Assembly (NCBI RefSeq): GCF_012927245.1
Contig: NZ_JABBGE010000001.1
Location: 248,001-312,000, forward strand
DNA from: Streptomyces sp. R302
GTDB lineage: Bacteria > Actinomycetota > Actinomycetes > Streptomycetales > Streptomycetaceae
Direction of reading: 5' to 3'
DNA: 64,000 bases
This document shows, in pieces, positions 7,616-41,501 of this stretch. The number at the start of each line of letters is the position of its first letter. Positions within the stretch are counted from its first letter, which is position 1. The notes beneath the pieces were generated by a model, which worked only from the letters and a program-made list of their open reading frames with translations, was not told the DNA's origin and did not search any database. Made by a program: the position numbers and the translations under genes.

Positions 7616-7645
7616 GCCGTACGCCCGAGCCGTACGCCCCATGGG

Positions 7646-7681: not shown

Positions 7682-7770
7682 GTCGTATGCGCGGCGAGGC
7701 CGGAGCCGTACCCGCGGAAGCCGCCCGAGGGGAACGGGCGGCTCCGCCGCGGGCGCGGCATCATGAGCCC

Positions 7771-8238: not shown

Positions 8239-8465
8239 AACAGACCGTCGGGTCGGGATGCCGTCCCGGATGGCGCGATCTCATCGAAGATCACCCTCCC
8301 GGCATCCGCAGGGTCCCTGCTAAACCAAACCCCCGAGTCCGAAACATGCTGCTGGCACGCATCGACTTTCGGCCCCTGGCGTGAACACGACGTCCTTATT
8401 CCCCACCAAACCGGGCGAAGGTCTCCCAATTCAGGGACCTGGATTTCATACCTTCCGGTTTCTTA

Positions 8466-8495
8466 TTGACATGACCAGGGGGGTCTTTTTTTAAT
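8466..8495 (+). promoter_or_regulatory. Sigma-70-like promoter of the SARP gene
   Basis: A perfect TTGACA (8466-8471) is followed after 18 bp by TTTAAT (8490-8495), within the most A+T-rich stretch nearby. A start point near 8502 would give a leader of about 34 bases before the GTG start at 8536. The rest of the 8239-8535 gap shows no gene. Confidence 0.7.
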
Positions 8496-8535
8496 CAACC
8501 TCAGGATCCGCTTGCGCAGACACCGAGGGGGCATA

Positions 8536-9615
8536 GTGGACATCCACATCCTGGGGGGACTGTCGGTCCGCGAGGGCGGGGTACCGATCACTCCGACAGC
8601 GGCCGCTCCACGCCAGATCCTCGCCCTGCTCACCGCCTTCGCCGGCCAGGTCGTGCCCGTCACCGTCCTCACCGAGGAGCTGTGGCCGTCCGGCGCCCCG
8701 CGCGGCGCCCGCACCGAGATCGCCACCCACATCGCGGAGCTCCGCGCGCTCATCGCCCGCGCCCTCCACGAGTCCGCGGAGGACACCGGCGCGGCCGGCT
8801 GGACCGAGCGGCGCACCGCCGACGCCGTCCTCGTCTCGCTCCCCGGCGGCTACCGCCTCGACACCGGCGTCGGCGTCCACGACATCGGCCAGTTCGAGCG
8901 CGCGGCCGGCGCCGGCTACCGCGCCATGGACGCCGGCGACCTGGCCCGCGCCTCGCTGCGGCTCGGCGAGGCCCTCGCCCTCTGGCACGGCGAGCCCTAC
9001 GCGGGCGTGGCCGCGGGCCCCTGCCTCCGCCGCGAGATAGAGCGCCTGGAGTCCGCCCGCCTCAGCGTCCTCGACCAGTGGGTGGAGGCCCAGCTCGGCC
9101 TCGGCCGGCACGAGGCGATCCTCTCCGAACTCCCCGGTCTCGCCGCCCGCTACGCCACCAACGAACCGCTCCACGCCCACCTCATGGTCGCCCTGCTCCG
9201 CTGCGGCCGCCACGAGGAGGCCCTCGCCGTCTACGAGCGGCTGCGCACGGTCCTCCACCGGGAGACCGGCATGGAGCCCTCCGCCCGCCTCCGCCGGCTG
9301 CAGCACTCCGCCCTCGCCGTCCGCCACACGCGCGCGCCCGCCGCGACCGGCACCCGCACCGCGCTCAACGGCACCTCCGAGGGGCTCTTCGGGTACGCCG
9401 TCGTGCCCGCGCCCGCGCGTACCGCCGCCACTGCCGCCGCCACGTCCTCCGCCGCCACGTCCTCCGCCGTCACGTCCTCCGCCGTCACGTCCTCCGCCGC
9501 CGCCGAGGAGACGCCCGCCGTCACCTGGTACGGCCCCGCCGTGCCGCGCGTCCCCGGCCAGCCCAAGCCCGTCCGCGCCGGCACCGTCACCACGGGCGTC
9601 GCCATGGCTGTCTGA
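8536..9615 (+). CDS. SARP-family transcriptional regulator (BTAD domain)
   Basis: The 359-aa product has an N-terminal OmpR-like winged helix (IHILGGLSVREGG to VLVSLPGGYRL, about residues 1-115) and a bacterial transcriptional activation domain (about 115-265, containing LALWHGEPYAG and LHRETGMEPS). SARPs activate antibiotic clusters by binding direct repeats near promoters. GTG 8536 is chosen because GAGGGGG lies 4 bases upstream; an in-frame TTG at 8512 is the alternative. The C-terminal tail carries a 15-bp repeat encoding Ala/Thr/Ser units. No obvious biosynthetic target is adjacent. Confidence 0.9.
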   Translation: MDIHILGGLSVREGGVPITPTAAAPRQILALLTAFAGQVVPVTVLTEELWPSGAPRGARTEIATHIAELRALIARALHESAEDTGAAGWTERRTADAVLVSLPGGYRLDTGVGVHDIGQFERAAGAGYRAMDAGDLARASLRLGEALALWHGEPYAGVAAGPCLRREIERLESARLSVLDQWVEAQLGLGRHEAILSELPGLAARYATNEPLHAHLMVALLRCGRHEEALAVYERLRTVLHRETGMEPSARLRRLQHSALAVRHTRAPAATGTRTALNGTSEGLFGYAVVPAPARTAATAAATSSAATSSAVTSSAVTSSAAAEETPAVTWYGPAVPRVPGQPKPVRAGTVTTGVAMAV

Positions 9616-9681
9616 CGCGCCGTCGGTTCCGCCTCCGGAGGGGACGGCGGAGCCCCGGGAATGAAGTGCCGCACGTCACCG

Positions 9682-9710
9682 TTGACCCGCTTCCGGGACC
9701 GAATTAGTTT
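9682..9710 (+). promoter_or_regulatory. Promoter of the PucR-type regulator
   Basis: TTGACC (9682-9687) and TAGTTT (9705-9710) are separated by 17 bp, upstream of the regulator starting at 9774. Confidence 0.5.
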
Positions 9711-9773
9711 CGGCCGCGAGGACGGGTTTTCTCCGAGGTGCCCGATTTAGGTTCGACGACGGGGGTGGGGGAG

Positions 9774-28585: not shown

Positions 28586-28665
28586 GCCGAGTACCCTGCC
28601 GGTCGATCTTGATACATTCCCGATGCGTCTTCGATGCGCGCACGGACGACTCCTCGAAGGACGGC

Positions 28666-31572
28666 ATGCGGTTCACGATCCTCGGTCCGGTGGAGGCCGT
28701 GGCTCCCGGCTCGGACGCGCCCGGCCTGGCACCCCGCCATCGCGCGGTGCTCGCCTATCTGCTGCTGCACGCCGGGGTGGCGGTCAGCACGGATCGCCTG
28801 ATCGACGCGATGTGGGGGCCGCTGCCGCCGGACTCCGCCCGCGCGCAGATCCAGACCACGATCGCCGCGATCCGACGGATGCTGCGCGCTTCGGGGAACG
28901 ACCGGATGCTGGTCACACGGCCGGCCGGATACGTGATCACACCCGGGCCGGGACAACTCGACCTGGACGAGTTCACCGGCCTGGTCGCCAAGGCGTCGGC
29001 GGGCTCCGGCGACCCGGGGGAGACGGCGGACCGGATGCGCGCCGCGCTGGCGCTGTGGCGGGGAGAACCGCTGGCCGGCATCACCGCCCACTACGTGCAG
29101 GGCGCCAGAGGACGCCTCGACGGGCAGCGGCTCACCGCCGTCGAGCGCCTGGCCGAGGTCGAACTGTCCCTGGGCCGTCACGAGGACGTCATCGACGAGC
29201 TCTCCGCCCATCTGGCGGCCCACCCGCTGCGGGAGCGGCTGTGCTGCCACCTGATGCTCGCCCTGCACCGTGCCGGACGGCAGGCCGACGCGCTGGACGT
29301 GGCGAGAACCTTCCGGTCGAACCTGGCCGAGGAGCAGGGACTCGACCCGGGCCACGCGTTCGGCAAGCTCGAACAGGACATCCTGCGGGACGCCGCCGAC
29401 CTGCGGCCGCCGGACGCCGCGCCGGCGAAGCCGCAGGGGAGCAACTTCCTGCCGTTCGACGTCCCGGACTTCACCGGACGCGAGGGCGAGCTCGACGGGC
29501 TGACCCGCAAGTGGGCGGGGAACGACGGCGGAGTCGTGACGATCTCGGCGATCGACGGGATGGCCGGGGTCGGCAAGACGGCGCTCGCGGTCCACGTGGG
29601 GCACCGCCTCGCCGCGCACTTCCCCGACGGGCAGCTCTTCGTGGACCTCCAGGCCCACACCGCCGGTCAGCTGCCGCTGGACTCCGGCGCCGCGCTGGAG
29701 GTCCTCCTCGGCCAGCTCGGCGTGCCGGCGCAGCAGATTCCGGCGTCGGTCGCCGAGCGCGCCGCGCTGTGGCGGTCCGAGCTCTCCGGCCGTCGCGTGC
29801 TGGCCGTCCTCGACAACGCCCTCGGCATCGACCAGATACGCCCGTTGCTGCCGGGCTCCTCCTCTCCCGCCCTCCTCCTGGTCACGAGCCGGCGGCGGCT
29901 GACCGACCTGGACGGGGCGCACGCCCTGTCCATGGACGTGCTGCCCGCCGCCGACGCCGTCGAGCTGTTCGCGGCGATCGTCGGCGAACGGGCCGCCGCC
30001 GAACCCCTGGCCGTCCTCGACGTCCTCCAGCTGTGCGGATTCCTGCCGCTGGCCGTCCGCATCGCCGCCGCCCGGCTGCACCACCGCCCCCGGTGGACCG
30101 TCGCCCACCTGGCCGGCCGGCTCCGCGACCAGCGCCGCAGACTGGCCGAACTGGCCACCTCGGAACGAGGGGTGGCCGCGGCCTTCACGCTCTCCTACCA
30201 GCAGCTCACGCCCGATCAGCAGCGCATGTTCCGGCTTCTGGGACTTCAGCCGGGCCGTGACATCGGCCCGGAGGCGGCCGCCGCGCTGACCGGCCTCCCG
30301 CTCGACGAGGCCGAGACCCTCCTCGAAGACCTCCTGGACGCCCACGTCCTGACCCAGCACCAGCTCGGCCGCTACACCTTCCACGACCTGCTCCGCGAGC
30401 ACGCCCTCGCCACCGCCGCCGCCGAGGAGCCCTCCGACGCCCGGAGCGAGGCCCTCGGCCGGCTGTTCCACCACTATCTCCACACCGCGAGCACGGCCGT
30501 CGACCACCTCTACCCCGAGGGCAGGAACCGCAGGCCGCGCATCCCCGCGCCGGACGAACCGGCCCGGCCCCCGCAGGACGAGGCCGAGGCGATCACCTGG
30601 CTGGACGGCGAACGCGCGAACCTCATGGCGACCGGTCAGTACGCGGCCGACCACGACTGGCACTCCCACACCGGCCGACTGGCCGCCACCCTGCACCGCT
30701 ACCTGCTGGGCCACGGCCACCAGGCCGACGCGCTGGCCCTCAACGGCCTGGCACTGCGCGCCGCCCGCCTCTGCGGCGACACGGCCGCCGAAGCCCGCAC
30801 GCTCATCGACCGGGGCCAGGTGTACTTCTGGTGGCACGGCGCCTACGAGCAGGCGGCCGAGCACTTCCGGAACGCCCTGGACCTCGCGCGCGAGACCGGC
30901 GACCAGGGCGTCGCGGCCAGCGCGCTGGCCGCCCTCGGCACCGTCGCCACGCGGCGGCGCGCCTACGACCGGGCCCACGAACACTGCGCGCAGGCCCTCG
31001 CGCTCTTCCAGGAGCTCGGCGACCGCGGCGGCGAGGCGAGATGCCTGACCGACCTCGGCATCGTCCACGAACGCCAGGGACGATACGAGGACGCCCACGA
31101 GCACCACCGGAAGGCGCTGCACGTGTACCGCGAGACGGGATCCCGCATCGGCGAGACCGTCGTGCTGAACAACATCGGCCTGCTGTGCCAGCAGCAGGCC
31201 CGCTACGACGAGGCCCGGCGCCACCACGGCGAAGCCCTCGACCTGAGCCGCCGCTTCGACTTCCCCGGCGACGAGGCCGAGTCCCTCAACGCCCTCGCGG
31301 AAGCCTCCCGCTCCCTGGGCGACCTCGCCCGGGCCGTGACCGAGTTCGACTCCGCGCTGACCCTCGCCCGGGAGTTCAGCTACCTCCCCGAACAGGCCCG
31401 CGCCCACAACGGCCTCGCCCACGTCCACCGCGACCTCGGCCGCACCGACCTCGCCCACGACCACGCCCGCCAGGCCCTCGACCTCTACACCGCCCTCGCG
31501 GTCCCCGAAGCCGAAGAGGTCCGCACCTTCCTCGCCGACCTCCCCCCGACACCGAGCACCCCCGAACCCTGA
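28666..31572 (+). CDS. AfsR-type SARP regulator with NB-ARC and TPR domains
   Basis: This 968-aa protein has an OmpR-like DNA-binding domain (about 1-95), a BTAD (about 95-245), an NB-ARC ATPase domain with P-loop GMAGVGKTAL near residue 298, and C-terminal tetratricopeptide repeats from about residue 690 (for example DRAHEHCAQALALFQELGDR). AfsR-like proteins integrate signals and activate secondary-metabolite genes. ATG 28666 follows GAAGGA; the earlier in-frame start at 28609 is less likely. It probably controls the divergent minus-strand group including the glycosyltransferase-methyltransferase gene. Confidence 0.92.
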   Translation: MRFTILGPVEAVAPGSDAPGLAPRHRAVLAYLLLHAGVAVSTDRLIDAMWGPLPPDSARAQIQTTIAAIRRMLRASGNDRMLVTRPAGYVITPGPGQLDLDEFTGLVAKASAGSGDPGETADRMRAALALWRGEPLAGITAHYVQGARGRLDGQRLTAVERLAEVELSLGRHEDVIDELSAHLAAHPLRERLCCHLMLALHRAGRQADALDVARTFRSNLAEEQGLDPGHAFGKLEQDILRDAADLRPPDAAPAKPQGSNFLPFDVPDFTGREGELDGLTRKWAGNDGGVVTISAIDGMAGVGKTALAVHVGHRLAAHFPDGQLFVDLQAHTAGQLPLDSGAALEVLLGQLGVPAQQIPASVAERAALWRSELSGRRVLAVLDNALGIDQIRPLLPGSSSPALLLVTSRRRLTDLDGAHALSMDVLPAADAVELFAAIVGERAAAEPLAVLDVLQLCGFLPLAVRIAAARLHHRPRWTVAHLAGRLRDQRRRLAELATSERGVAAAFTLSYQQLTPDQQRMFRLLGLQPGRDIGPEAAAALTGLPLDEAETLLEDLLDAHVLTQHQLGRYTFHDLLREHALATAAAEEPSDARSEALGRLFHHYLHTASTAVDHLYPEGRNRRPRIPAPDEPARPPQDEAEAITWLDGERANLMATGQYAADHDWHSHTGRLAATLHRYLLGHGHQADALALNGLALRAARLCGDTAAEARTLIDRGQVYFWWHGAYEQAAEHFRNALDLARETGDQGVAASALAALGTVATRRRAYDRAHEHCAQALALFQELGDRGGEARCLTDLGIVHERQGRYEDAHEHHRKALHVYRETGSRIGETVVLNNIGLLCQQQARYDEARRHHGEALDLSRRFDFPGDEAESLNALAEASRSLGDLARAVTEFDSALTLAREFSYLPEQARAHNGLAHVHRDLGRTDLAHDHARQALDLYTALAVPEAEEVRTFLADLPPTPSTPEP

Positions 31573-31712: not shown

Positions 31713-32324
31713 GTGTCCCCAGTACCCCGGGCCAAGCTGCTGAGTCGGGCGATCCTCGCGGGGACGTCCGTCTATCTCGCCGGCCAGGTGGTGCACACGG
31801 TCCTCAACACCAACCGGTGGCCGTTCTGCACCTTCAACATGTTCGCGTACCACAAGCGTGACCAGGCGCTGCAGATGCGCGTCCGGCTCTTCACGGACGA
31901 CGGCGAGGCCGTCGGGCCCACCGATCCGTGGTCGCTGCTGCCGCTGGAGTTCTTCCGGGTGGTGTCCGTCCTGGAACGGGTCTTCCACGCGCAGGACGAC
32001 GTCGAGGTCCGCGACCGGTTCTGCCGGCAGGCGCTGGAGCGGCTGAACCGGCGCGGGTGGCGGGCCTGGGACGAGGTGAAGGCGTCGTTCTCGGCGGGTC
32101 CCGGGCGGCGGTTCGTCGCGATGGAGCTGTACTTCGTCGAGGTCGACTTCCGGACCTGCTCCCCCTACGACCGGACGGAGGTGACGTCGGCCGAGCTCGT
32201 CCACCGGTACGACCCCGAAGGCGTCGTGGCCGATCGGGCGGAGGCACCGCTGTGGCGGTTCGTCGAGCCCCTCGTCGAGGAGACCGAGCATGAGAGCAAG
32301 GAGGAGGCGGGGCATGCTGCCTGA
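31713..32324 (+). CDS. Membrane-anchored protein of unknown function, partner of HTTM protein
   Basis: The 203-aa product has one N-terminal hydrophobic segment (LLSRAILAGTSVYLAGQVVH) followed directly by a WPFCTFNMFAYH motif and a soluble alpha/beta-looking domain. GTG 31713 has an AGAGAG-type SD. The following HTTM gene begins inside its 3' end, so the two are translationally coupled. Proteins with a W-P-F-x-x-F-x-M-F motif after a membrane helix are often encoded with HTTM proteins. I do not recognise a function. Confidence 0.7.
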   Translation: MSPVPRAKLLSRAILAGTSVYLAGQVVHTVLNTNRWPFCTFNMFAYHKRDQALQMRVRLFTDDGEAVGPTDPWSLLPLEFFRVVSVLERVFHAQDDVEVRDRFCRQALERLNRRGWRAWDEVKASFSAGPGRRFVAMELYFVEVDFRTCSPYDRTEVTSAELVHRYDPEGVVADRAEAPLWRFVEPLVEETEHESKEEAGHAA

Positions 32325-33201
32325 GATCACCGGGGCGCGTCAGCGCCTCGCACTGGCCCGGCTCACCACCGGCCTGGCGATTCTGAACACGCTCTGGCAC
32401 CTCCCGCCCGGCGACGCCCTCGTCGACGAGTGGAGCCGGAAGGCGGAGGGCGAGGACGGCCCGGCCTCCGGGCGGCTGAGCGCCGAGCAGTACGAGGCGC
32501 TGCGGCGGCTCGCGTTCGTGTCGACGGCCGCCTGGACGCTCGGCGCCGAGAGCAAGGCCCTCACGTTCGCGGCCAACGCCTCGTTCGCCGCCGTGCAGCG
32601 ACACGTGGCGCAGTTCGACCAGCGGGCGTGGAACTACAACTCCAACCTCAACGTCTACCTGCTCCTGCTCTCCCTGACCGACTCGCGCGGCAGCCTCGCC
32701 GAAGCCGTCGGAGAGGGGACGGGCGACGGTACGGGCGGCGGGACGGACGACGGCACGGACGGCGGGGGACCGTCGTCCGACGTCGCCACCGCCGTGCTGC
32801 TCGCCCTGCGGCTGTACTACGGCTGCCTCTACTTCCAGTCGGGGCTCTCCAAGCTGCTGCTGAGCGGGCCCGCCTGGGCCGACGGCCGTACCCTGCGCGG
32901 CAGCTGGGCCGAGCTGGGCACCCGCGCCGGCAAGTGGCTCAGCCGGCGGCCGATGACGGTGGCGGCCGCCGCCAGCGCCGCCACGCTCGCCTTCGAACTG
33001 CTCTTCCCCGCCGCGCAGATCGCGCTGCGCAAGCGCCCCCGTGCCGTGGGGCTGTCCTCCCTCGCCTTCCACGCCTCCATCAAGGCGACGATGGGCATCT
33101 CCTTCTGGCACCACGCCGTCCACGCCCTGCCGCTGTTCGTCCTCGACCCGGGCGCCGAACGGCACACGGCACGCCTCCTGCGTCCCTTCCGGAAGCGCTG
33201 A
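32314..33201 (+). CDS. HTTM (vitamin K-dependent carboxylase-like) membrane protein
   Basis: The 295-aa protein is largely hydrophobic and has the HTTM features of a tyrosine-rich helix ending in LYYGCLYFQSGLSKLLLSGP. HTTM proteins are related to gamma-glutamyl carboxylase and to SdpB of the Bacillus toxin system; most bacterial members have unknown function. A Gly/Thr/Asp-rich linker (GEGTGDGTGGGTDDG) interrupts the middle. ATG 32314 follows GGAGGAGG and overlaps the upstream gene by 11 bases. The gene ends 273 bases before the microcin-like precursor gene and has its own terminator, so membership of that cluster is open. Confidence 0.72.
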   Translation: MLPEITGARQRLALARLTTGLAILNTLWHLPPGDALVDEWSRKAEGEDGPASGRLSAEQYEALRRLAFVSTAAWTLGAESKALTFAANASFAAVQRHVAQFDQRAWNYNSNLNVYLLLLSLTDSRGSLAEAVGEGTGDGTGGGTDDGTDGGGPSSDVATAVLLALRLYYGCLYFQSGLSKLLLSGPAWADGRTLRGSWAELGTRAGKWLSRRPMTVAAAASAATLAFELLFPAAQIALRKRPRAVGLSSLAFHASIKATMGISFWHHAVHALPLFVLDPGAERHTARLLRPFRKR

Positions 33202-33473: not shown

Positions 33474-33533
33474 ATGCTGAAGATCATCAAGGTCGTCGCC
33501 GCCCGCGCCGTCTCCGGCCGCGCCTTCAACTAG
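33474..33533 (+). CDS. mccA: Microcin C-like precursor peptide, 19 aa, C-terminal Asn
   Basis: ATG 33474 is preceded by GGGAG at a 6-base spacing and encodes MLKIIKVVAARAVSGRAFN before a TAG. In microcin C the ribosomal peptide MccA ends in Asn, and MccB converts that residue to a phosphoramidate-linked nucleotide. Here the peptide also ends in Asn, is directly followed by a hairpin, an exporter gene and an MccB homologue. From memory, the precursor of the Bacillus amyloliquefaciens peptide-cytidine antibiotic has the same length and a shared MLKI-KV-RA-G-N pattern. The peptide is basic and amphipathic, as expected for entry into target cells. It is too short for normal gene finders. The symbol is given by analogy. 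Confidence 0.88.
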   Translation: MLKIIKVVAARAVSGRAFN

Positions 33534-33545
33534 CAGTCGTCGCCT

Positions 33546-33580
33546 CGCGGGCCGGGAGCGACCCCGTTTCCCGGCCCGCG
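33546..33580 (+). terminator. Intra-operon hairpin between precursor and exporter genes
   Basis: A perfect 12-bp stem (33546-33557 and 33569-33580) with an 11-base loop begins 12 bases after the precursor stop codon. In the E. coli mcc operon a terminator in the same place, modulated by ribosomes on mccA, keeps precursor mRNA in excess over the downstream genes. The same role is inferred here. Confidence 0.75.
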
Positions 33581-33625
33581 GCAGCGCAGTCCAGTCCCGA
33601 AGTTCGTCCGGAGGCGGAACGGCCC

Positions 33626-34936
33626 ATGGTGCATACGGAAAAGAAGGACGCGGAACCGTCCGGTGTGAAATCCATCTGGCGCGACTCCAGATTCCGCCGC
33701 CATTTCGCCGGAATGTGGGTCAACGCCTTCGGGAACGGCGTCTTCAACATCGTCCTTCCGCTTCTCGTCCTCGACCGGACGCATTCCTTCGCCGCGATGG
33801 GCGGCGTGGCCCTCGCCACCCAGCTGCCCAAGGCGTTCCCCGGCCCCCTCGTCGGCGTGCTCGCCGACCGCCGGTCGCCCCGCGCGATGATGCTGTGGGC
33901 CTACCTCCTCCAGGCCGGCCTCGTCCTGACGATCCCGCTCGCCGCCGGCGCGTCCGTCGCCGCCGTCTGGCTGATCGGCCTCATCGCGTACGCGATGAAC
34001 ACCATCGACCTGTTCGCCCGCACGGCCACCTTCGTCACCATCCCCCGCGTGTACGGAGACCGCCGCAGCAAGGTGAACGCGGCCTTCGCCAGCGCCTGGA
34101 CGTCCGCCTCGGTCCTCGGCCCCGCCGCCGGCGGGTTCCTGCTGCAGGTCACCTCGGCCGACGTGCTGATGCTGCTCGACAGCCTCACCTTCCTGGCCAT
34201 CGCCGCCGTCGTCCTCACCATCGGCGTCCCCACCACGCCCGGGAACGCCTCCACCGCCCCCATCCGGAAGAGCCTCGTCGAAGGCCTCACCTGGTTCCGC
34301 AGGGCCGAGGGCGCCGGGCGGTTCATGAGCTCGATCGCCGCCGTGGCCGTCGTGTACGCGCCCCTCGGCACCCTGGCCGTCTTCGCCGTACGGGACGTGT
34401 ACGGCGACGGGCCCACCGAGGCCGGCATCGTGACGAGCGCCGCCGGCGCGGGCCTCTTCCTCGGCACCCTGGTCTGCCAGCGCCTCGCCGACCGGCCCAA
34501 GGAACCCGTGATGCGGCGGGCCGCCTTCTGGATGGCCTTCGGCGCGGCCCTCTTCGCCGTCCCGTCCTGGATCGGCGCCGCGGCGGCGATGCTCGTCGTG
34601 AACCTCTGCGGCATGGTCTACGCGGTCTCCCGCTCCAACCTCATCCAGGAGCGCGTCCCGATGGAGCACCTGGGCCAGACGATGACCGCCGTGCAGTCCC
34701 TGGAGTCCGCCGTCCAGCCGGTCTCCGTCGCCGTCGTGAGCGCCGTGCTCGCCCTGGCCGGACCGCCCGGAGCGGCCGTCTTCCTCACCGCCTTCTCGGT
34801 CGTCGCGGCCCTGCTCGTCCTCGGCGGCGGGCGGCTCCTTGCACCCCGTACCGAGACCGTGGCCCCGACCACCTCCCGCACCCCGTCCACCCTGAACGCG
34901 ACCGCCTCCGCGGCGGCCCACGGAGGTACCCGATGA
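33626..34936 (+). CDS. mccC: MFS exporter, MccC-like
   Basis: The 436-aa protein has about 12 hydrophobic segments and major-facilitator features (WVNAFGNGVFNIVLPLLVLD; LADRRSPRAMMLWAYLLQAG). It sits between the precursor gene and the MccB homologue, exactly where mccC encodes the export pump that secretes the peptide-nucleotide and gives partial immunity. ATG 33626 follows GGAGG by 11 bases. Its TGA overlaps the mccB ATG. General MFS function is certain; the substrate is inferred from context. Confidence 0.85.
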   Translation: MVHTEKKDAEPSGVKSIWRDSRFRRHFAGMWVNAFGNGVFNIVLPLLVLDRTHSFAAMGGVALATQLPKAFPGPLVGVLADRRSPRAMMLWAYLLQAGLVLTIPLAAGASVAAVWLIGLIAYAMNTIDLFARTATFVTIPRVYGDRRSKVNAAFASAWTSASVLGPAAGGFLLQVTSADVLMLLDSLTFLAIAAVVLTIGVPTTPGNASTAPIRKSLVEGLTWFRRAEGAGRFMSSIAAVAVVYAPLGTLAVFAVRDVYGDGPTEAGIVTSAAGAGLFLGTLVCQRLADRPKEPVMRRAAFWMAFGAALFAVPSWIGAAAAMLVVNLCGMVYAVSRSNLIQERVPMEHLGQTMTAVQSLESAVQPVSVAVVSAVLALAGPPGAAVFLTAFSVVAALLVLGGGRLLAPRTETVAPTTSRTPSTLNATASAAAHGGTR

Positions 34937-36033
34937 CTTCGATCAACCTGCGGCAGGGCCTCTCCGTCCTGCAGCCGGGCAAGGACCTCATGATCGGCCT
35001 CATGCCGCCCGCGGCACTGGCCGTCGAGGACGCCCCCGACTACCTGCGGCACGTCCTGTCCGCCTTCTCCCGGCCCGTCCCCGAGGCGGAGGCGCTCGCC
35101 ACCGTGACCGCCCACTCCGACCTGGGCGTCGAGGAAGCCGGCCGGCTTCTCTCTGAGCTCCGCTGCGCCGGGGTGCTCACCACGCACTGGGTCGACCGGG
35201 AGGAGCGCTACAGCCGCCACCGCCTCTACTTCGGCGTCGCGGGCTTCGAGGGCGACCCGATGGCCGTCATCCGGAACAGCACCGTCGGGCTCATCGGCAC
35301 CGGCGGCATCGGCAGCAACGTGGCGATGATGCTGGCCGCGGCGGGTGTCGGCCGGCTGGTCGTCGCCGACGCGGACGTCGTGGAGACCACGAACCTCACC
35401 CGCCAGTTCCTGTACACCGAGGGCGACGTCGGCACCCCGAAGGTCGAGGCCCTGGCCCGCCGCGTCGCCGAACGCAACACCGAGGTGCGCGTCGACGTCG
35501 TCAACGACGTCTTCGACGGCCCCGACTTCGCCGTCCGGCACTTCGCCGACTGCGACCTCGTCATCCTCTCCGCCGACACCCCGCAGGACGTCCACCGCTG
35601 GCTGAACGAGGCGTCGGTCCGGACCGGCGTCCCCTACACCTGCGCCGGCTACCTCGACACGATGGGCATCGTCGGCCCGCTCGTCGTCCCCGGGCGCACG
35701 GCCTGCCTGGAGTGCCACTTCGCCGACACCGGCCTGGCCTCGTTCAACGGCGGCGACCTGGAGACCACCGACTTCACCGACTACAACCAGGCCTACCAGG
35801 CCCCGAGCTACGGCCCGCTCAACGCCATGGTCTCGGCCGCCGCCGTCAACGACACCCTGCGCTTCCTCCTCGGCCTGCCGGCCAGGTCCCTGGGCACGAA
35901 GCTGCTCCTCGACTCCATCGAGTACGGCGTCCAGACGGAGGAGTACGAGCGGAACGCCGCCTGCGGCTCGTGCGGCACGGGCGGTGCGGGTGGCACGGGC
36001 CTACGTGAAGAGGCACTGAGCGGCGCGGTGTAG
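34933..36033 (+). CDS. mccB: MccB-like peptide nucleotidyltransferase (E1/ThiF superfamily)
   Basis: The 366-aa protein has an N-terminal winged-helix-like peptide-binding region (about 1-110) and an E1/ThiF adenylation domain with nucleotide loop GTGGIGSN (about 122), acidic strand end VVADADVV, the E1-type TNLTRQFLY segment and the KVEAL helix. A zinc site is formed by CLEC (Cys258, Cys261) and CGSC (Cys344, Cys347). MccB activates the C-terminal Asn of the precursor with ATP (CTP in some systems) through a succinimide to give a stable P-N bond. GGAGG lies 7 bases before the ATG. A ThiF/MoeB housekeeping role is unlikely because sulfur-carrier partners are missing and the gene is coupled to the exporter. 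Confidence 0.9.
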   Translation: MTSINLRQGLSVLQPGKDLMIGLMPPAALAVEDAPDYLRHVLSAFSRPVPEAEALATVTAHSDLGVEEAGRLLSELRCAGVLTTHWVDREERYSRHRLYFGVAGFEGDPMAVIRNSTVGLIGTGGIGSNVAMMLAAAGVGRLVVADADVVETTNLTRQFLYTEGDVGTPKVEALARRVAERNTEVRVDVVNDVFDGPDFAVRHFADCDLVILSADTPQDVHRWLNEASVRTGVPYTCAGYLDTMGIVGPLVVPGRTACLECHFADTGLASFNGGDLETTDFTDYNQAYQAPSYGPLNAMVSAAAVNDTLRFLLGLPARSLGTKLLLDSIEYGVQTEEYERNAACGSCGTGGAGGTGLREEALSGAV

Positions 36034-36060: not shown

Positions 36061-36570
36061 TCAGTCGCGCAGGAGGAGTTCCATCTCCCGTTCACGCTGG
36101 TTCGCGTTCAGCGGGTACGGCTCCTCGTGGCCGGTCGGGACGAAGCCGCTGCGCCGGTAGAAGCCGATGGCCCGGCGGTTCTCCTCGTGGACGAGGAGGA
36201 CGAGGCGCTCGGCGGCCGTCTCCTCGCGCGCCCAGCGCACGATCTCGTCCAGCATGAGCGCCGCCACGCCCCCGGCCGGGCCCCGGTGGTCCGGGTGCAG
36301 CCAGACGCCGACGAGCTTGGCCGTGTCCTGCGCCGGCAGGAATCCGTTCATGACCCCGACCCACGCTCCCTCGGGCTCGACGGCCGCCACACCGATGTTG
36401 CCCGGGCTCGCGGACCGCGTCGTGCGGAACCGCCACTCGGAATCGGGGTGGGCGAGGGCGTCGTCGAGCGTCTCCAGGTAGGCGAGCGGGGTGTCGCGGA
36501 TCATGTCCAGGCGTATCGCCCGGTACGCGGGCCAGTCCTCCGCCTGTACGCGGTGCAGGGTGTAGTCCAT
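36061..36570 (-). CDS. GNAT N-acetyltransferase, possible self-immunity enzyme
   Basis: The 169-aa single-domain GNAT has WLHPDHRGPAGGVAALMLDE as acetyl-CoA loop and EENRRAIGFYRRSGF as the C-terminal motif. Its stop is 27 bases from the end of the MccB homologue, convergent. In E. coli the MccE acetyltransferase domain detoxifies processed microcin C by acetylating the aminoacyl nucleotide. A similar role here is plausible from position alone; a generic acetyltransferase is equally possible. Confidence 0.8.
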   Translation of the reverse strand: MDYTLHRVQAEDWPAYRAIRLDMIRDTPLAYLETLDDALAHPDSEWRFRTTRSASPGNIGVAAVEPEGAWVGVMNGFLPAQDTAKLVGVWLHPDHRGPAGGVAALMLDEIVRWAREETAAERLVLLVHEENRRAIGFYRRSGFVPTGHEEPYPLNANQREREMELLLRD

Positions 36571-36614: not shown

Positions 36615-36645
36615 ATTCATCGAATATCGTCGATGATCGATGAAT
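36615..36645 (+). promoter_or_regulatory. Operator-like inverted repeat overlapping the arsR start
   Basis: ATTCATCGA (36615-36623) and its exact reverse complement TCGATGAAT (36637-36645) flank 13 bases and overlap the ATG of the ArsR-type gene at 36640. This suits autoregulation. Confidence 0.6.
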
Positions 36646-36963
36646 ACCTCAGAGGCGATCACCGAGGACGAGGCCCGTACGTACGCCACGTGGTTCCGGG
36701 CCCTCGGCGACCCCACCCGCGTCCGGCTGCTGCACCTGCTCGCCGGGGCCGGGCGGGCGATGACGGTGGGCGAACTGGTCGCCCGGGTGGACGTCGGCCA
36801 GTCGACCGTCTCCCACCACCTGAAGATCCTGGCCGAGGTCCGCTTCGTCCTCGCCGAGAAGCAGGGGACCTCGACCCTGTACGCCGTGAACCGCACCTGC
36901 CTGTCGGTCTTCCCCCGCGCGGTGCGGTCGATCATGGGGGAGGAGGTGCCCGATGGGTGCTGA
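36640..36963 (+). CDS. arsR: ArsR-family transcriptional repressor
   Basis: The 107-aa winged-helix protein has the ArsR core FRALGDPTRVRLLHLL and recognition helix DVGQSTVSHHLKILAEV. The classic ELCVCDL metal site is replaced by MTVGELVARVD, so As(III) sensing through that helix is not expected; a C-terminal cysteine exists (PDGC). It overlaps the GNAT gene downstream by 11 bases and probably represses it. Confidence 0.88.
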   Translation: MNTSEAITEDEARTYATWFRALGDPTRVRLLHLLAGAGRAMTVGELVARVDVGQSTVSHHLKILAEVRFVLAEKQGTSTLYAVNRTCLSVFPRAVRSIMGEEVPDGC

Positions 36964-37453
36964 GTACGCGTCGGCCCCGATGACCGCCGACCACGCCGAG
37001 CAGGTCCTGGCGATCTACCGGGCCGGGATCGACGAGGGCGACGCCACCTTCGAGACCACCGCGCCGACGTGGGAGGTCTTCGACGCGGGCAGACTGCCCG
37101 GGCACCGCTTCGTCGCCCTCGGCGAGGCCGACCGCGTCCTCGGCTGGGTCGCCGCCTCCGCCGTCTCCGACCGCCGCGTGTACGCGGGGGTGGTCGAGCA
37201 CTCGGTGTACGTCCATCCCGAGGCCCGTGGACGCGGGGTCGCCGGCGCCCTCCTGCGGGCCCTGATCGACTCCACGGAGGCGGCCGGGATCTGGACGATC
37301 CAGTCCGGGATCTTCCCGGAGAACACGGCGAGCCTCGCCGTGCACGAGCGCGCGGGCTTCCGCCTCATCGGCCGGCGCGAGCGCGTCGGCCGGCACCACG
37401 GCCGGTGGCGGGACACGGTGCTGCTGGAGCGCCGCAGCCGGGTCGTCGGCTAG
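36953..37453 (+). CDS. PAT-like GNAT acetyltransferase, ArsN1 candidate
   Basis: The 166-aa protein is of the phosphinothricin/methionine sulfoximine acetyltransferase type (YASAPMTADHAEQVLAIYRAG at the N-terminus; SVYVHPEARGRGVAGALLRAL; NTASLAVHERAGFR). In arsenic gene clusters, ArsN1 proteins of this type acetylate the antibiotic arsinothricin or methylarsenical amino acids. It is translated from the ArsR gene's end and is next to arsO/acr3. Acetylation of a glutamate-like toxin is therefore a good guess; phosphinothricin resistance is the alternative. Confidence 0.82.
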   Translation: MGAEYASAPMTADHAEQVLAIYRAGIDEGDATFETTAPTWEVFDAGRLPGHRFVALGEADRVLGWVAASAVSDRRVYAGVVEHSVYVHPEARGRGVAGALLRALIDSTEAAGIWTIQSGIFPENTASLAVHERAGFRLIGRRERVGRHHGRWRDTVLLERRSRVVG

Positions 37454-38511
37454 CGCAGGAGCTCGGCGACGGCGCGGGCCGCGTCGCGGGCCGGGCGGCC
37501 GACGCCGATGAGGGTGGCGGAGGCGGGGCCGGTCCAGTCGCCGTAGCCGAGGAGGTGGAGGCGGGGTTCGCCGATCGCCTGGGTGCCGGTGGTGGGGATG
37601 TGGCCTCGGGGGCCGCGCAGGCCCAGCGGGGCGAGGTGGGAGAGGGCGGGGCGGAAGCCGGTGCACCAGATGATCGCGTCGGCTTCGGCCGTCGTGCCGT
37701 CGGGCCATTCCACGCCGGTCGCGGTGAGCCGGGTGAACATCGGCTGCGCCTTGAGGAGTCCGGCGTCGCGGGCGGTGCGGACCGGGGGGACGGCGACGAT
37801 GTCGCCGAGGGAGGCGACGCCGCCGGTGTCGGTGCGGCCCTCGTCGAGGGCCTTGCGGCGTGCGGTGGCGTGGTCGAAGAGGGCGCGGCCGTCGATGTCG
37901 TCGGCGAGGTAGCGGGGTTCGCGGAGGGTGACCCAGGTCAGGTCGGAGTCGTACGCGAGGTCGGCGGCGATCTGCGCGCCGGAGTTGCCGCCGCCGACCA
38001 CGATCACCTTCCGGCCGGCGAAGTCGGAGGGCCGCTGGTACTCCACGGTGTGGAGCTGGGCGCCCTGGAACTCCGTACGGCCGGGGACGGCCGGGACGAA
38101 GGGGCGGGACCAGGTGCCCGTCGCGCTGATGACCGCCCGGGCCCGCCACGTACCCGAGTCGGTTTCGACGCGGAGGAGTTCGCCGTCGCGGTGGACGCCC
38201 GAGACGCGTACGGGGCGGTGGACTGGGAGGTCGTAGCGCTGCTCGTAGTCGGAGAGGTACGCGACGACGTGGGCCGCGTCCGGGTACGTCTCGCCCGGCT
38301 GCGGGGGCATCAGGCGGCCGGGGAGGGACGAGTACGCGGCGGGGGAGAAGAGGTGGAGGGAGTCCCAGGTGTGCTTCCAGGCGCCGCCAGGGGACGTATC
38401 GGCGTCCAGGACGACGAAGTCCAGTGCGGCACGGCGCAGGTGGTAGCCGGCGGCGAGGCCCGCCTGGCCTCCGCCGATCACGACGACGTCGACGGTCTGG
38501 TGCTGGGGCAT
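37450..38511 (-). CDS. arsO: ArsO-like flavin-dependent monooxygenase
   Basis: The 353-aa protein has an FAD-binding GGGQAGLAAGYHLRR loop near the N-terminus, an NAD(P)H-binding VVGGGNSGAQIAADLA loop in the middle, and ATG motif SATGTWSRP, as in flavin monooxygenases of the ArsO/CzcO type found in ars operons. It follows acr3 with a 78-bp gap on the same strand and probably belongs to the arsR-acr3-arsO transcript. Its precise arsenical substrate is unproven in the family. It converges with the GNAT gene, overlapping by 4 bases. Confidence 0.85.
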   Translation of the reverse strand: MPQHQTVDVVVIGGGQAGLAAGYHLRRAALDFVVLDADTSPGGAWKHTWDSLHLFSPAAYSSLPGRLMPPQPGETYPDAAHVVAYLSDYEQRYDLPVHRPVRVSGVHRDGELLRVETDSGTWRARAVISATGTWSRPFVPAVPGRTEFQGAQLHTVEYQRPSDFAGRKVIVVGGGNSGAQIAADLAYDSDLTWVTLREPRYLADDIDGRALFDHATARRKALDEGRTDTGGVASLGDIVAVPPVRTARDAGLLKAQPMFTRLTATGVEWPDGTTAEADAIIWCTGFRPALSHLAPLGLRGPRGHIPTTGTQAIGEPRLHLLGYGDWTGPASATLIGVGRPARDAARAVAELLR

Positions 38512-38589
38512 GCCCGGGATTCCCTTCTCGACGACGGTGCCCCGGCCCGCGCGGCGGGGCGGGGCACCTGGTGGTGACGCGGAGCGTGC

Positions 38590-39675
38590 CTACCGCTGGG
38601 CGGGGGCGAACTTCCTGCGCCAGGCCAGCGACACGTACACCAGGGCGACGAGGACGGGGACCTCGATCAGCGGGCCGACGACGCCGGAGAGGGCCTGGCC
38701 GCTGGTGACGCCGAAGGTGGCGATGGCGACGGCGATGGCGAGCTCGAAGTTGTTGCCGGCCGCGGTGAAGGCGAGGGTCGCCGTGCGGTCGTAGTGCAGG
38801 CCGATCGCCTTGCCGAGCGCGAAGGTGCCGAACCACATGATCGCGAAGTAGACGAGGAGGGGGAGCGCGATGCGGGCGACGTCGAGCGGCTGCGAGGTGA
38901 TCGTCTTCCCCTGGAGGGCGAAGAGGATCACGATGGTGAAGAGCAGGCCGTAGAGGGCCCACGGGCCGATCCTCGGCAGGAACTTCGCCTCGTACGACTC
39001 GCGGCCCAGCTTCTTCTCGCCGATGCGGCGGGTCAGGAAGCCCGCGACGAGCGGGACGCCGAGGAAGATGACGACGTTCAGCGCGATCTTCCACATGGAG
39101 ATGTCGAGCGTCTCGCCCTCGCCCAGGCCCAGCCAGCCGGGCAGCAGGTCGAGGTAGAACCAGCCGAGGACGCCGAAGGCCAGGACCTGGAAGACCGAGT
39201 TCAGGGCGACCAGGACGGCGGCGGCCTCGCGGTCGCCGCAGGCGAGGTCGTTCCAGATGATGACCATGGCGATGCAGCGGGCCAGGCCGACGATGATCAG
39301 GCCGGTGCGGTACTCGGGCAGGTCCGGCAGGAAGATCCAGGCCAGGGCGAACATGATCGCCGGGCCCAGGATCCAGTTGATGACCAGCGAGGAGATCATC
39401 AGCTTGCGGTCGCCGGTGACGGCGTCGAGCCTGTCGTAGCGGACCTTGGCCAGGACCGGATACATCATGATCAGCAGTCCGACGGCGATGGGGAGCGAGA
39501 TCCCGCCGATCTCGACCTTCGCGAGGGCGTCGTCCAGGCCGGGGACCAGCCGCCCGAGGCCGAGGCCGAGGCCCATGGCCAGGAGGATCCAGACGGCGAG
39601 GAAGCGGTCGAGTGTCGACAGCTTCGCGACCACGGACTTCTCGGGACTCGTGGTCGTGGGGGCGGCGGGGGTCAC
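38590..39675 (-). CDS. acr3: Arsenite efflux transporter Acr3
   Basis: The 361-aa ten-helix protein matches Acr3: NWILGPAIMFALAWIFLP, GLARCIAMVIIWNDLACGD with the essential conserved Cys of the family, and AAGNNFELAIAVAIATFG. It expels As(III) using the membrane potential. GTG 39675 overlaps the TGA of the upstream ArsR gene, giving translational coupling and excluding longer starts. Confidence 0.96.
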   Translation of the reverse strand: MTPAAPTTTSPEKSVVAKLSTLDRFLAVWILLAMGLGLGLGRLVPGLDDALAKVEIGGISLPIAVGLLIMMYPVLAKVRYDRLDAVTGDRKLMISSLVINWILGPAIMFALAWIFLPDLPEYRTGLIIVGLARCIAMVIIWNDLACGDREAAAVLVALNSVFQVLAFGVLGWFYLDLLPGWLGLGEGETLDISMWKIALNVVIFLGVPLVAGFLTRRIGEKKLGRESYEAKFLPRIGPWALYGLLFTIVILFALQGKTITSQPLDVARIALPLLVYFAIMWFGTFALGKAIGLHYDRTATLAFTAAGNNFELAIAVAIATFGVTSGQALSGVVGPLIEVPVLVALVYVSLAWRRKFAPAQR

Positions 39676-39980
39676 GGGCAGGACCTCTTGGTGTCGGCGT
39701 TGGCGCGGGCGGTGGCGGCGAGGCCGGCGAACTGCTCGGCGAGCGAGTCCAGGACCTCGGGCTGCAGTCGGTAGTACGTGAACCGGCCGCAGGGCTCGGT
39801 GTCCACGACGCCGGCCTCGCGGAGCACGCGCAGGTGGTTGGAGAGGTTGGTCTGTCTGGCCCCCGTCTCCTCCACCAGGTGCGTGGTGCACAGGGTCTCG
39901 CGGGCGAGCAGGGTCACGATCTGGAGCCGCAGCGGGTCGGCGAGGACCTTCAACAGCTCAGTGTCGACTGACGTCAGCAT
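39672..39980 (-). CDS. arsR: ArsR-family arsenic-responsive repressor
   Basis: The 102-aa protein has the ArsR winged helix (LKVLADPLRLQIVTLLARE; RQTNLSNHLRVLREAGV). Cysteines lie in ETLCTTHLVEE and EPCGRFTYY and near the C-terminus (KRSCP), giving a possible thiolate site for As(III). It heads the acr3 operon and is divergent from arsC. Confidence 0.93.
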   Translation of the reverse strand: MLTSVDTELLKVLADPLRLQIVTLLARETLCTTHLVEETGARQTNLSNHLRVLREAGVVDTEPCGRFTYYRLQPEVLDSLAEQFAGLAATARANADTKRSCP

Positions 39981-40054
39981 GGACTGATACTGTCACATCA
40001 TTGAGGGCTGATGCCAGCCCGGGCTGATACCTGCCTGCTGTGAAGGAAGAACCG
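39981..40054. promoter_or_regulatory. Divergent arsR-acr3 / arsC control region
   Basis: This 74-bp gap contains an inverted pair CATCA (39996-40000) and TGATG (40009-40013), plus repeated CTGATAC/CTGATGC elements. It is the natural site for ArsR binding to both divergent promoters. Confidence 0.5.
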
Positions 40055-40486
40055 ATGTCCGAGACCCCGCTCGCGTCCGTACTGTTCGTCTGCGTCCACA
40101 ACGCGGGGCGCTCCCAGATGGCCGCCGGCTTCCTCCGCCACCTGGCGGGCGACCGCGTCGAGGTCCGCTCGGCCGGCTCCCTCCCGGGCGACCAGGTCAA
40201 CCCGGCCGCCGTGGCCGCCATGACCGAGCTCGGCATCGACATCTCCGACCAGAAGCCGAAGGTCCTCACCGCCGAGGCCGCGCAGGCGTCGGACTACATC
40301 ATCACCATGGGCTGCGGCGACGCCTGCCCCTACTTCCCCGGCAAGACCTACCTCGACTGGGTCCTGGAGGACCCGGCCGGCCAGGGGGTCGAGGCCGTCC
40401 GTCCCATCCGGGACGAGATCAAGGGGCTCATCGAGGGCCTCATCGCGGAGATCGACTCCAAGAACGCCGAGAAGCAGGAGAGCTGA
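40055..40486 (+). CDS. arsC: Arsenate reductase, low-molecular-weight phosphatase type
   Basis: The 143-aa protein has the phosphatase-type active site CVHNAGRS (Cys13) and the distal redox cysteines in GCGDACPYFPG. It reduces As(V) to As(III) with electrons from thioredoxin (or mycothiol in related actinobacterial enzymes). ATG 40055 follows GAAGGAAG. The next gene is a thioredoxin reductase, fitting the thioredoxin-coupled type. Confidence 0.95.
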   Translation: MSETPLASVLFVCVHNAGRSQMAAGFLRHLAGDRVEVRSAGSLPGDQVNPAAVAAMTELGIDISDQKPKVLTAEAAQASDYIITMGCGDACPYFPGKTYLDWVLEDPAGQGVEAVRPIRDEIKGLIEGLIAEIDSKNAEKQES

Positions 40487-40493
40487 CCTCACC

Positions 40494-41501
40494 ATGACGA
40501 CTGCCACGACCCCGACCGGTGCCCAGGACGACGTCCGCGAGGTCGTCATCATCGGCTCCGGCCCCGCCGGGTACACCGCCGCGCTCTACACGGCCCGCGC
40601 CCAGCTGAAGCCGCTGCTGTTCGGCAGCTCCATATTCGTCGGCGGCTCGCTCACCACCACCACCGAGGTCGAGAACTTCCCCGGCTTCCCCACCGGCATC
40701 GACGGCCCGGACCTCATGGACGACATGCGGGCCCAGGCCGAGAAGTTCGGCGCCGAGATGATCGACGACGACATCGTCTCCGTCGACCTCGCCGGCGACA
40801 TCAAGCTCCTCACCGACTCCGCCGGCACCGTCCACCGCGCGAAGACGGTGATCATCGCCACCGGCTCCGGCTACCGCAAGCTCGGCCTCCCCCAGGAGGA
40901 CGAGCTGTCCGGTCGCGGCGTCTCCTGGTGCGCCACCTGCGACGGCTTCTTCTTCCGCGACCGCGACATCGTCGTGGTCGGCGGCGGCGACACCGCCATG
41001 GAGGAGGCCACCTTCCTCACCCGCTTCGCCCGCTCGGTCACCGTCGTCCACCGCCGCTCCACCCTGCGCGCGTCCAAGACCATGCAGAACCGGGCCTTCG
41101 CCGACGACAAGATCTCCTTCGCCTTCGACAGCGAGGTCGCCGAGATCAGGTCCGAGAACGGCATGCTGTCCGGCGTCGTCCTCCGGGACGTCCTCTCCGG
41201 CGAGACCCGCGAGCTGGACGCGACCGGCCTGTTCATCGCCATCGGCCACGACCCGCGCACCGAACTCTTCGCCGACCAGCTCGAACTCGACGGCGAGGGC
41301 TACCTGAAGACGCAGTCCCCGACGACCCGTACGAGCCTCCCGGGCGTCTTCGGCGCCGGTGACGTCGTCGACCACATCTACCGCCAGGCCATCACGGCCG
41401 CGGGCTCCGGCTGCGCCGCCGCCCTCGACGCCGAGCGGTACCTCGCGGCCCGCCGCGACGCGGAGCCGGCCGCCGAGGCCGGGCTCGTCACCGCCGGCTG
41501 A
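40494..41501 (+). CDS. trxB: Thioredoxin reductase, arsenic-operon copy
   Basis: The 335-aa flavoprotein has the FAD loop GSGPAGYTAALYTARA, the active-site CATC in SWCATCDGFFF, the NADPH loop VVGGGDTAMEEA and the C-terminal GVFGAGDVVDH. It starts 8 bases after arsC and likely regenerates thioredoxin for ArsC. It is probably a second copy besides the housekeeping trxB, which is not in the window. Confidence 0.93.
   Translation: MTTATTPTGAQDDVREVVIIGSGPAGYTAALYTARAQLKPLLFGSSIFVGGSLTTTTEVENFPGFPTGIDGPDLMDDMRAQAEKFGAEMIDDDIVSVDLAGDIKLLTDSAGTVHRAKTVIIATGSGYRKLGLPQEDELSGRGVSWCATCDGFFFRDRDIVVVGGGDTAMEEATFLTRFARSVTVVHRRSTLRASKTMQNRAFADDKISFAFDSEVAEIRSENGMLSGVVLRDVLSGETRELDATGLFIAIGHDPRTELFADQLELDGEGYLKTQSPTTRTSLPGVFGAGDVVDHIYRQAITAAGSGCAAALDAERYLAARRDAEPAAEAGLVTAG

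What the first reader, a model, noticed from the sequence alone, without database searches (positions are those of the whole stretch)
33474..36033. Microcin C-like peptide-nucleotide antibiotic locus in an actinomycete
Seen: a 19-codon gene with good SD whose product ends in Asn; an MFS gene; an E1/ThiF protein with P-loop, zinc tetrad and N-terminal winged-helix region, coupled by ATGA. Known: MccB enzymes modify the C-terminal Asn of MccA with a nucleotide, MccC exports it. Inferred: this strain makes a peptide-nucleotide Trojan-horse inhibitor of (probably) aspartyl-tRNA synthetase. The tiny gene would be missed by normal annotation. From memory, the precursor shares length and the MLKI/KV/RA/G/N positions with a Bacillus peptide-cytidine system.
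Basis: partly seen in the sequence, partly recalled or inferred. Interest (0 to 1): 0.95.

Follow-up and report, generated by a model that had tools for sequence, protein, structure and literature searches.

The report
Streptomyces microcin C-like antibiotic cluster
This Streptomyces genome carries a compact gene cluster with a 19-residue peptide gene ending in asparagine that likely makes a microcin C-like "Trojan-horse" antibiotic, predicted to poison bacterial aspartyl-tRNA synthetase, and beside it sits a conserved two-gene membrane module that probably takes the place of the usual tailoring genes and whose role is untested.

Summary
The enzyme's best solved relative is E. coli MccB (E 4e-41; next family 7e-18), and in a tree it falls with MccB-like enzymes, apart from MoeB/ThiF. 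The precursor is conserved in four Streptomyces-type loci; other MccB loci carry 18-22-residue Asn-ending ORFs. So it is a microcin C-like locus, predicted (by phylogeny only) to make a peptidyl-cytidylate.

A small protein (31713-32324) and a membrane protein (32290-33201) whose predicted fold matches the vitamin K-dependent gamma-carboxylase membrane domain recur with single-domain MccB in Streptomyces, Arthrobacter and a Bdellovibrionaceae MAG (12 loci). The known carboxymethylation module is in 9 other loci; no examined locus has both. A linked GNAT gene (36061-36570, -) is a candidate self-immunity gene, and a conserved hairpin follows mccA.

Actinobacterial mcc clusters are in print (Nocardia, Mycobacteroides, Nocardiopsis); I found no Streptomyces one in my searches, but key papers are not held. 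No chemistry was tested. Verdict: new variant of a known kind.

The parts
33474..33533 (+). mccA-like precursor, 19 aa MLKIIKVVAARAVSGRAFN
   Evidence: identical in L006/L007, 2 changes in L008, 3 in L009; only 2 such SD-led Asn-ending ORFs in 64 kb
33626..34936 (+). mccC-like MFS exporter, 436 aa
   Evidence: MFS_1 E 1.7e-28; TIGR00900 E 3.3e-39 (below its curated cut-off); homologues (39-42%) in six Arthrobacter/Paenarthrobacter mcc loci
34933..36033 (+). mccB-like ThiF-fold peptide nucleotidyltransferase, 366 aa, single domain (no methyltransferase fusion)
31713..32324 (+). small protein with a hydrophobic N-terminal helix (by eye and in the model) and a WPF..NMF motif; first gene of the conserved pair
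   Evidence: 13 homologue clusters, own counted; profile of Streptomyces-type rows finds it in six Arthrobacter/Paenarthrobacter loci (E 5.3e-18 or better) and weakly in L021 (E 0.0034; 1.3e-5 with Arthrobacter rows)
32290..33201 (+). membrane protein, predicted fold of the vitamin K-dependent gamma-carboxylase (GGCX/HTTM) membrane domain
33546..33580 (+). 12-bp hairpin directly after mccA (possible partial terminator or attenuator)
   Evidence: 12 of 12 pairs kept in 5 of 5 loci (4 distinct sequences), one compensatory GC to AU in L009; folding z -2.91
36061..36570 (-). GNAT acetyltransferase, candidate self-immunity gene
   Evidence: 73-92% copies beside mcc in L006, L008, L009 and 2.5 kb away in L007; more distant Streptomyces copies 41-46%

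Best explanation
The locus is a microcin C-like cluster in which the MccB-type enzyme would likely attach a nucleotide to the C-terminal asparagine of the 19-residue precursor MLKIIKVVAARAVSGRAFN, and the MFS protein would likely export the product. Shown: the genes, the conserved precursor, the MccB ancestry, and the conserved extra genes. Inferred: MccB turns the C-terminal Asn into an isoAsn phosphoramidate of a nucleotide, probably CMP, because the relatives in its part of the tree for which papers read here report a nucleotide (Nocardia vaccinii directly; Bacillus amyloliquefaciens and Yersinia pseudotuberculosis by close kin) use cytidine; the product enters target cells as a peptide, is trimmed, and the remaining isoAsn-nucleotide mimics aspartyl-adenylate and blocks aspartyl-tRNA synthetase. 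Inferred: the pair 31713-33201 stands in for the carboxymethylation module of relatives as a maturation or tailoring step, and the GNAT acetylates the processed toxin for self-protection, as the MccE C-terminal domain does in E. coli.
For: PDB: three MccB sequences E 4e-41 to 5e-41, next family 7e-18. Tree: 59 MccB-like rows split from 6 MoeB/ThiF rows at SH-aLRT 100; the window sits in a 10-row Streptomyces-type clade (100) inside a 47-row group (support 90) that holds relatives from Bacillus, N. vaccinii and Yersinia similis but not E. coli MccB. Precursor conserved in 4 of 4 Streptomyces-type relatives, and Asn-ending ORFs of 18-22 aa in L010-L018, L020, L022, L024 and L060 (these scans asked for a final Asn). 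A 62-aa Asn-ending ORF in L021. N. vaccinii MccB in print cytidylates a 21-aa Asn-ending precursor (PMC9239234 passages). In 4 related loci an AspRS gene lies between mccA and mccB, which fits AspRS as target.
Against: No product, enzyme assay or activity is known. ThiF-like RiPP enzymes can do other chemistry (PaaA, GrcB, EnfB, IndF; PMC12250964 and PMC12150305 passages). CTP use rests on a quick tree with support 90, not on a tested residue. The methyltransferase and cxSAM synthase of the B. amyloliquefaciens type are absent. GNAT has no MccE hit in the PDB sequence search. The membrane pair also occurs in L103 and L104, where the window's MccB gives no match, so its role is not specific to McC. 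My scans found no convincing Asn-ending precursor in L019 (one is in print), L023, L025, L026 or L030.
Confidence: 0.87

Rival explanations
1. The ThiF-like enzyme activates the peptide C-terminus but makes a macrocycle or amide (like GrcB, EnfB, IndF or PaaA) rather than a nucleotide phosphoramidate.
For: ThiF-like RiPP enzymes with these chemistries are in print; a PaaA chain matches the N-terminal part.
Against: Best match and tree place it with MccB. The C-terminal Asn is kept in all five Streptomyces-type precursors (window, L006-L009). The precursor has no Cys, Trp, Glu or Asp, so the Glu-Cys and Trp linkages of GrcB and IndF are out; EnfB's product is unsettled.
Confidence: 0.07
2. The enzyme is an ordinary MoeB/ThiF sulfur-carrier adenylyltransferase next to an unrelated MFS gene, and the small ORF is chance.
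For: Pfam PF00899 ThiF and NCBIfam ThiF/MoeB profiles match.
Against: All 23 listed NCBIfam scores are below their curated cut-offs (best 109 against 275 bits); tree and PDB place it with MccB; the ORF is conserved; MFS and MccB homologues travel together with Asn-ending ORFs in Arthrobacter.
Confidence: 0.02
3. The membrane pair 31713-33201 is a neighbour conserved by synteny only and has no role in the mcc system.
For: It lies upstream of mccA; the pair occurs where no MccB match was found in L103 and L104.
Against: Homologues lie between mccB and mccC in six Arthrobacter/Paenarthrobacter loci and just before GNAT and MccB in a Bdellovibrionaceae MAG; in L009, of 12 window genes tested only the pair, mccC, mccB and GNAT were found (short contig); 5 of 394 Streptomycetaceae genomes, own counted, have the membrane protein at E 1e-15.
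Confidence: 0.15
4. The locus makes a peptidyl-adenylate, not a cytidylate.
For: The enzyme is single-domain like E. coli MccB and lacks the cytosine-modifying domain.
Against: It groups with relatives of the cytidine-using MccBs of N. vaccinii and B. amyloliquefaciens, not with E. coli MccB.
Confidence: 0.3

Closest known systems
B. amyloliquefaciens peptidyl-carboxymethyl-cytidylate system (MccA 19 aa, fused MccB, MccS)
   Same: 19-aa precursor (length from PMC12250964 passage); MccB 39% identical to a B. amyloliquefaciens-labelled homologue, P0026, not shown to be the characterised protein
   Different: No methyltransferase domain and no cxSAM synthase match in the 64-kb window; extra membrane pair and GNAT instead
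Nocardia vaccinii / Mycobacteroides abscessus mcc (PMC9239234, passages read)
   Same: Actinobacterial mcc cluster with an Asn-ending precursor (21 aa in N. vaccinii) and related MccB (39% over the N-terminal domain)
   Different: N. vaccinii has fused MccB, MccS, MccD, MccE1, an MccX homologue and MccG; the window's genome has no S51 (MccG-family) match over the cut-off (one at E 9e-4 below it)
E. coli microcin C7 (mccABCDEF)
   Same: Asn-ending precursor, MccB, exporter; GNAT-type immunity concept
   Different: 7-aa precursor, AMP and aminopropyl decoration (PMC7136475 passages); E. coli MccB lies outside the window's 47-row group
B. subtilis SdpA/SdpB (YitP/YitO) pair of peptide-toxin operons (PMC6818787 passages)
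   Same: Two accessory proteins encoded with a peptide toxin and suggested there to be needed for its processing; that SdpA is small and SdpB a membrane protein is recalled
   Different: Homology not tested; the likeness is organisational, and those toxins are not known to be nucleotidylated (recalled)
Vitamin K-dependent gamma-carboxylase (GGCX) membrane domain / HTTM proteins
   Different: Pfam HTTM only E 0.016, under the cut-off; no sequence match to GGCX; about half the length of the GGCX chains; precursor has no Glu

Membership tests
Microcin C-like (MccABC) peptide-nucleotide systems | ThiF-fold enzyme of the MccB branch, not MoeB/ThiF | tested here: met
Microcin C-like (MccABC) peptide-nucleotide systems | Short precursor gene ending in Asn, conserved in relatives | tested here: met
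Microcin C-like (MccABC) peptide-nucleotide systems | Dedicated exporter gene in the operon | tested here: met
   MFS gene overlapping mccB by ATGA; export itself not tested
Microcin C-like (MccABC) peptide-nucleotide systems | Nucleotide transferred to the C-terminal Asn | not testable with these tools
   needs enzyme assay or MS; expected masses
Microcin C-like (MccABC) peptide-nucleotide systems | Processed product inhibits AspRS | not testable with these tools
   only indirect: AspRS gene inside 4 related mcc loci; the window's genome has one AspRS match, on another contig
Microcin C-like (MccABC) peptide-nucleotide systems | Self-immunity gene (MccE GNAT, MccF, MccG or MccH); frequent, not obligatory | tested here: inconclusive
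   GNAT 36061-36570 linked but no MccE hit; two S66 genes, on other contigs; no S51 over cut-off; HIT genes not searched
B. amyloliquefaciens-type peptidyl-carboxymethylcytidylate | Carboxymethyltransferase domain (usually C-terminal in MccB) | tested here: not met
   MccB ends at 366 aa; no MT match in the 64 kb
B. amyloliquefaciens-type peptidyl-carboxymethylcytidylate | MccS/CmoA-like cxSAM synthase in the cluster | tested here: not met
   no match in the 64 kb at E 1e-3
MoeB/ThiF sulfur-carrier adenylyltransferases | Groups with MoeB/ThiF and passes their NCBIfam cut-offs | tested here: not met
GGCX/HTTM (for 32290-33201) | Shared membrane-domain fold | tested here: met
GGCX/HTTM (for 32290-33201) | Pfam HTTM score above gathering cut-off | tested here: not met
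   15.2 against 27.7 bits
GGCX/HTTM (for 32290-33201) | Catalytic Lys218 of GGCX (recalled; K217/K218 mutants are in PDB titles) conserved | tested here: inconclusive
   Lys188 invariant in 30 of 30 rows and in a 16-row set with Arthrobacter and L021; residue-level match to Lys218 could not be printed

The most novel reading that the evidence does not exclude
Microcin C-like clusters have two interchangeable tailoring modules: the known cxSAM carboxymethylation pair, and here a new membrane pair in which a gamma-carboxylase-fold protein with an invariant lysine chemically modifies the peptidyl-nucleotide (for example a quinol-driven carboxylation or a base-catalysed epimerisation) before export. 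That would make it the first such membrane enzyme in a peptide-nucleotide antibiotic pathway.
Probability: 0.15. Interest if true: 0.88.

Novelty: new variant of a known kind. Interest (0 to 1): 0.62.

Why it matters
If right, Streptomyces and Arthrobacter hold a branch of microcin C-like antibiotics whose small precursor genes are easily missed by gene callers. The branch has, in place of the known carboxymethylation genes, a membrane-protein pair one of whose members has a gamma-carboxylase-like predicted fold, which makes the function of such proteins in peptide maturation directly testable on a 19-residue substrate. The AspRS gene inside four related mcc loci offers a second, target-based route to self-protection to test.

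Tried and rejected

Literature: 10 searches, of which I saw listings, and passages of PMC6495379, PMC9239234, PMC12250964, PMC7136475, PMC6818787, PMC9927463, PMC12150305 and PMC7157772. 'Streptomyces' occurs 0 times in the main texts of PMC6495379, PMC9239234, PMC12250964, PMC12150305 and PMC7157772; 'Arthrobacter' was looked up only in PMC9239234 (once, a standalone MccG homologue). The primary B. amyloliquefaciens paper (id taken from the reference list) and two papers looked up from recall are not held, so an earlier report of a Streptomyces cluster cannot be excluded.
Full report
Observation. The 19-codon ORF 33474-33533 reads MLKIIKVVAARAVSGRAFN behind a GGAG at 5 bases. A scan of both strands of the 64 kb for SD-led ATG/GTG ORFs of 7-40 codons ending in Asn finds two in all, and this is one of them. 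The MFS gene starts at ATG 33626 and overlaps mccB (34933-36033) by ATGA.

Enzyme identity. Against the PDB the 366-aa protein finds MccB first (three sequences, E 4e-41 to 5e-41), then ubiquitin E1 at 7e-18, MoeB at 2e-17 and ThiF at 2e-16. NCBIfam MoeB and ThiF models match below their cut-offs. In a quick maximum-likelihood tree of 65 rows, 59 MccB-like rows separate from 6 MoeB/ThiF rows at SH-aLRT 100; the window lies in a 10-row Streptomyces-type clade (100) inside a 47-row group (90) that also holds rows from Bacillus, Nocardia vaccinii, Yersinia similis and Bartonella, but not E. coli MccB. It is a quick tree without bootstrap and with some long branches (Bdellovibrionaceae L021, Mycoplasma L026, L003, L004, P0047, E. 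coli). The Gly-rich loop and four Cys of the presumed zinc site are invariant in 22 of 22 aligned rows.

Precursor conservation. The same 19-aa ORF lies upstream of the MFS gene in Streptomyces sp. NRRL F-5727 (L006, identical), S. roseicoloratus (L007, identical), a record named Microtetraspora glauca NRRL B-3735 (L008, 2 changes) and S. phyllanthi (L009, 3 changes). Against L009 the 200 bases upstream are 68.8% identical while mccA is 87.7%. More distant MccB loci carry their own Asn-ending small ORFs: 19 aa in six Arthrobacter/Paenarthrobacter loci and Streptacidiphilus pinicola, 21 aa in two Nocardiopsis, a Dactylosporangium MAG and a Mycobacterium MAG (25 aa from an earlier start), 18 aa in a gammaproteobacterial MAG, 22 aa in another Streptomyces (L060). 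The scans asked for an SD and a final Asn, so for these distant loci the Asn itself is not independent evidence. The scan found none convincing in L019, L021, L023, L025, L026 and L030; for L019 a 21-aa precursor is in print, and in L021 I found a 62-aa TTG-started one by eye.

The cluster is larger. tblastn of 12 window genes shows that 31713-32324 and 32290-33201 lie upstream of mccA in all four Streptomyces-type relatives. A profile of the membrane protein built without Arthrobacter or L021 rows finds it in L021 (E 1.5e-18) and in all six Arthrobacter/Paenarthrobacter loci (E 6.4e-5 to 7.6e-7) among 6771 ORFs; a profile of the small protein from Streptomyces-type rows finds it in the same six (E 5.3e-18 or better) and weakly in L021 (E 0.0034; 1.3e-5 once Arthrobacter rows are added). 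In the Arthrobacter loci both lie between mccB and mccC. In the Bdellovibrionaceae MAG L021 the order is a probable transporter (not family-tested), the small protein, the membrane protein, a GNAT, MccB and a gene weakly like TldD (below cut-off). Eleven columns are invariant in a 16-row alignment across the three groups. The small protein's family is narrow: 13 clusters, own counted, in the protein search; the membrane protein has 35 from a capped list of candidates. At E 1e-15 the membrane protein is in 5 of 394 Streptomycetaceae genomes, own counted, and above 90% only in the own genome and G1045, the L007 record. MccB at E 1e-50 is in 4 of 392 genomes of the genus and 3 of 394 of the family, own counted.

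Two modules not seen together. One tblastn table over the window and 30 fetched loci (L099 being L015 again) finds the membrane pair in 12 (window, L006-L009, L011-L014, L021, L022, L024) and the carboxymethyl module (MccB methyltransferase domain plus cxSAM synthase) in 9 distinct ones (L010, L015-L019, L023, L025, L060; weakest in L025). No locus has both. L020, L026 and L063-L069 have neither at that threshold; the L020 MccB frame is 567 aa with an unidentified extra part. Some queries came from loci in the table, but the profile test bears out the pair's distribution: among these MccB loci its only other hit up to E 1 is one of 0.014 in L064. The Streptomyces and Arthrobacter clades are sisters in the tree (support 92), so the pattern may reflect few evolutionary events.

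Immunity and regulation. GNAT 36061-36570 (-) follows mccB in the window, L006, L008 and L009 and lies 2.5 kb away in L007. In L009, of the 12 window genes tested, only the pair, mccC, mccB and this gene are found, on a short contig. In 150 Streptomyces genomes, 13 have a homologue at E 1e-25, own counted; besides the own and G115 (the L008 record, 88%) the others are 41-46% identical. In E. coli the MccE GNAT domain acetylates processed McC (PMC12250964 and PMC7157772 passages), so an immunity role is plausible but untested. A 12-bp hairpin starts 12 bases after mccA and keeps 12 of 12 pairs in 5 of 5 loci, with one compensatory change; from recall, E. coli mcc has a terminator-like hairpin at the same place, but that paper is not held.

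Related loci bearing on the target. In L010, L016, L017 and L018 an aspartyl-tRNA synthetase gene lies between mccA and fused mccB, followed by a cxSAM synthase. The two Nocardiopsis genomes show only that one AspRS at E 1e-40, while the two MAGs show a second, more distant one. In these relatives the presumed target is thus encoded within the cluster; whether it is a resistant form is unknown.

Prior art and verdict. mcc clusters in Nocardia, Mycobacteroides, Nocardiopsis and Thermobifida are in print (passages). I found no report of the Streptomyces or Arthrobacter branch, of the membrane pair, or of AspRS inside an mcc operon in my ten searches, but the key primary papers are not held. The locus is best filed as a new variant of a known kind. 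The core assignment is strong; the nucleotide, target, immunity and membrane-pair functions are inferences.

Noticed in passing
L021:5575-5763 and 5812-11019: Bdellovibrionaceae MAG mcc-like operon with a 62-aa Asn-ending precursor that ends in six VRNAGP units and a last VRN, plus a probable transporter, the pair, GNAT, MccB and a weakly TldD-like gene.
   Followed up: partly
L010:6062-7822, L016:7269-8891, L017:7282-8976, L018:7285-8973: Aspartyl-tRNA synthetase gene between a 21-aa mccA and fused mccB, followed by a cxSAM synthase. The L016 AspRS match is split in two.
   Followed up: partly
L104:4107-12598 (G105): Streptomyces locus without a match to the window's MccB in which the pair sits among a class II tRNA-synthetase-like gene, a methyltransferase, an S66 (MccF-family) peptidase, an AlaRS-like gene, an MFS gene and an ATP-grasp gene: perhaps another aminoacyl-nucleotide-like pathway.
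   Followed up: partly
L103:6715-8156 (G899): The pair beside a gene with a weak condensation-domain match, no MccB match.
   Followed up: no
L053 and L054 (G232:C1, 18 kb from each contig end): Two copies of a fused-type MccB gene with equal scores, at equal distance from both ends of a 10.37-Mb contig, as expected in terminal inverted repeats.
   Followed up: no
window 36640-41501: Arsenic gene set: ArsR-type regulators, ArsN1-like acetyltransferase (below cut-off), ArsO, ACR3, arsenate reductase-like (below cut-off), thioredoxin reductase.
   Followed up: partly
window 28609-31572: Large SARP/AfsR-type regulator (BTAD, NB-ARC, TPR) upstream of the cluster, not found beside mcc in L006-L009.
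   Followed up: partly
L063, L064, L066, L067: Actinobacterial loci whose ThiF-like enzymes (L055, L056, L057, L059) group with E. coli MccB in the tree and which carry neither module; precursors not examined.
   Followed up: no
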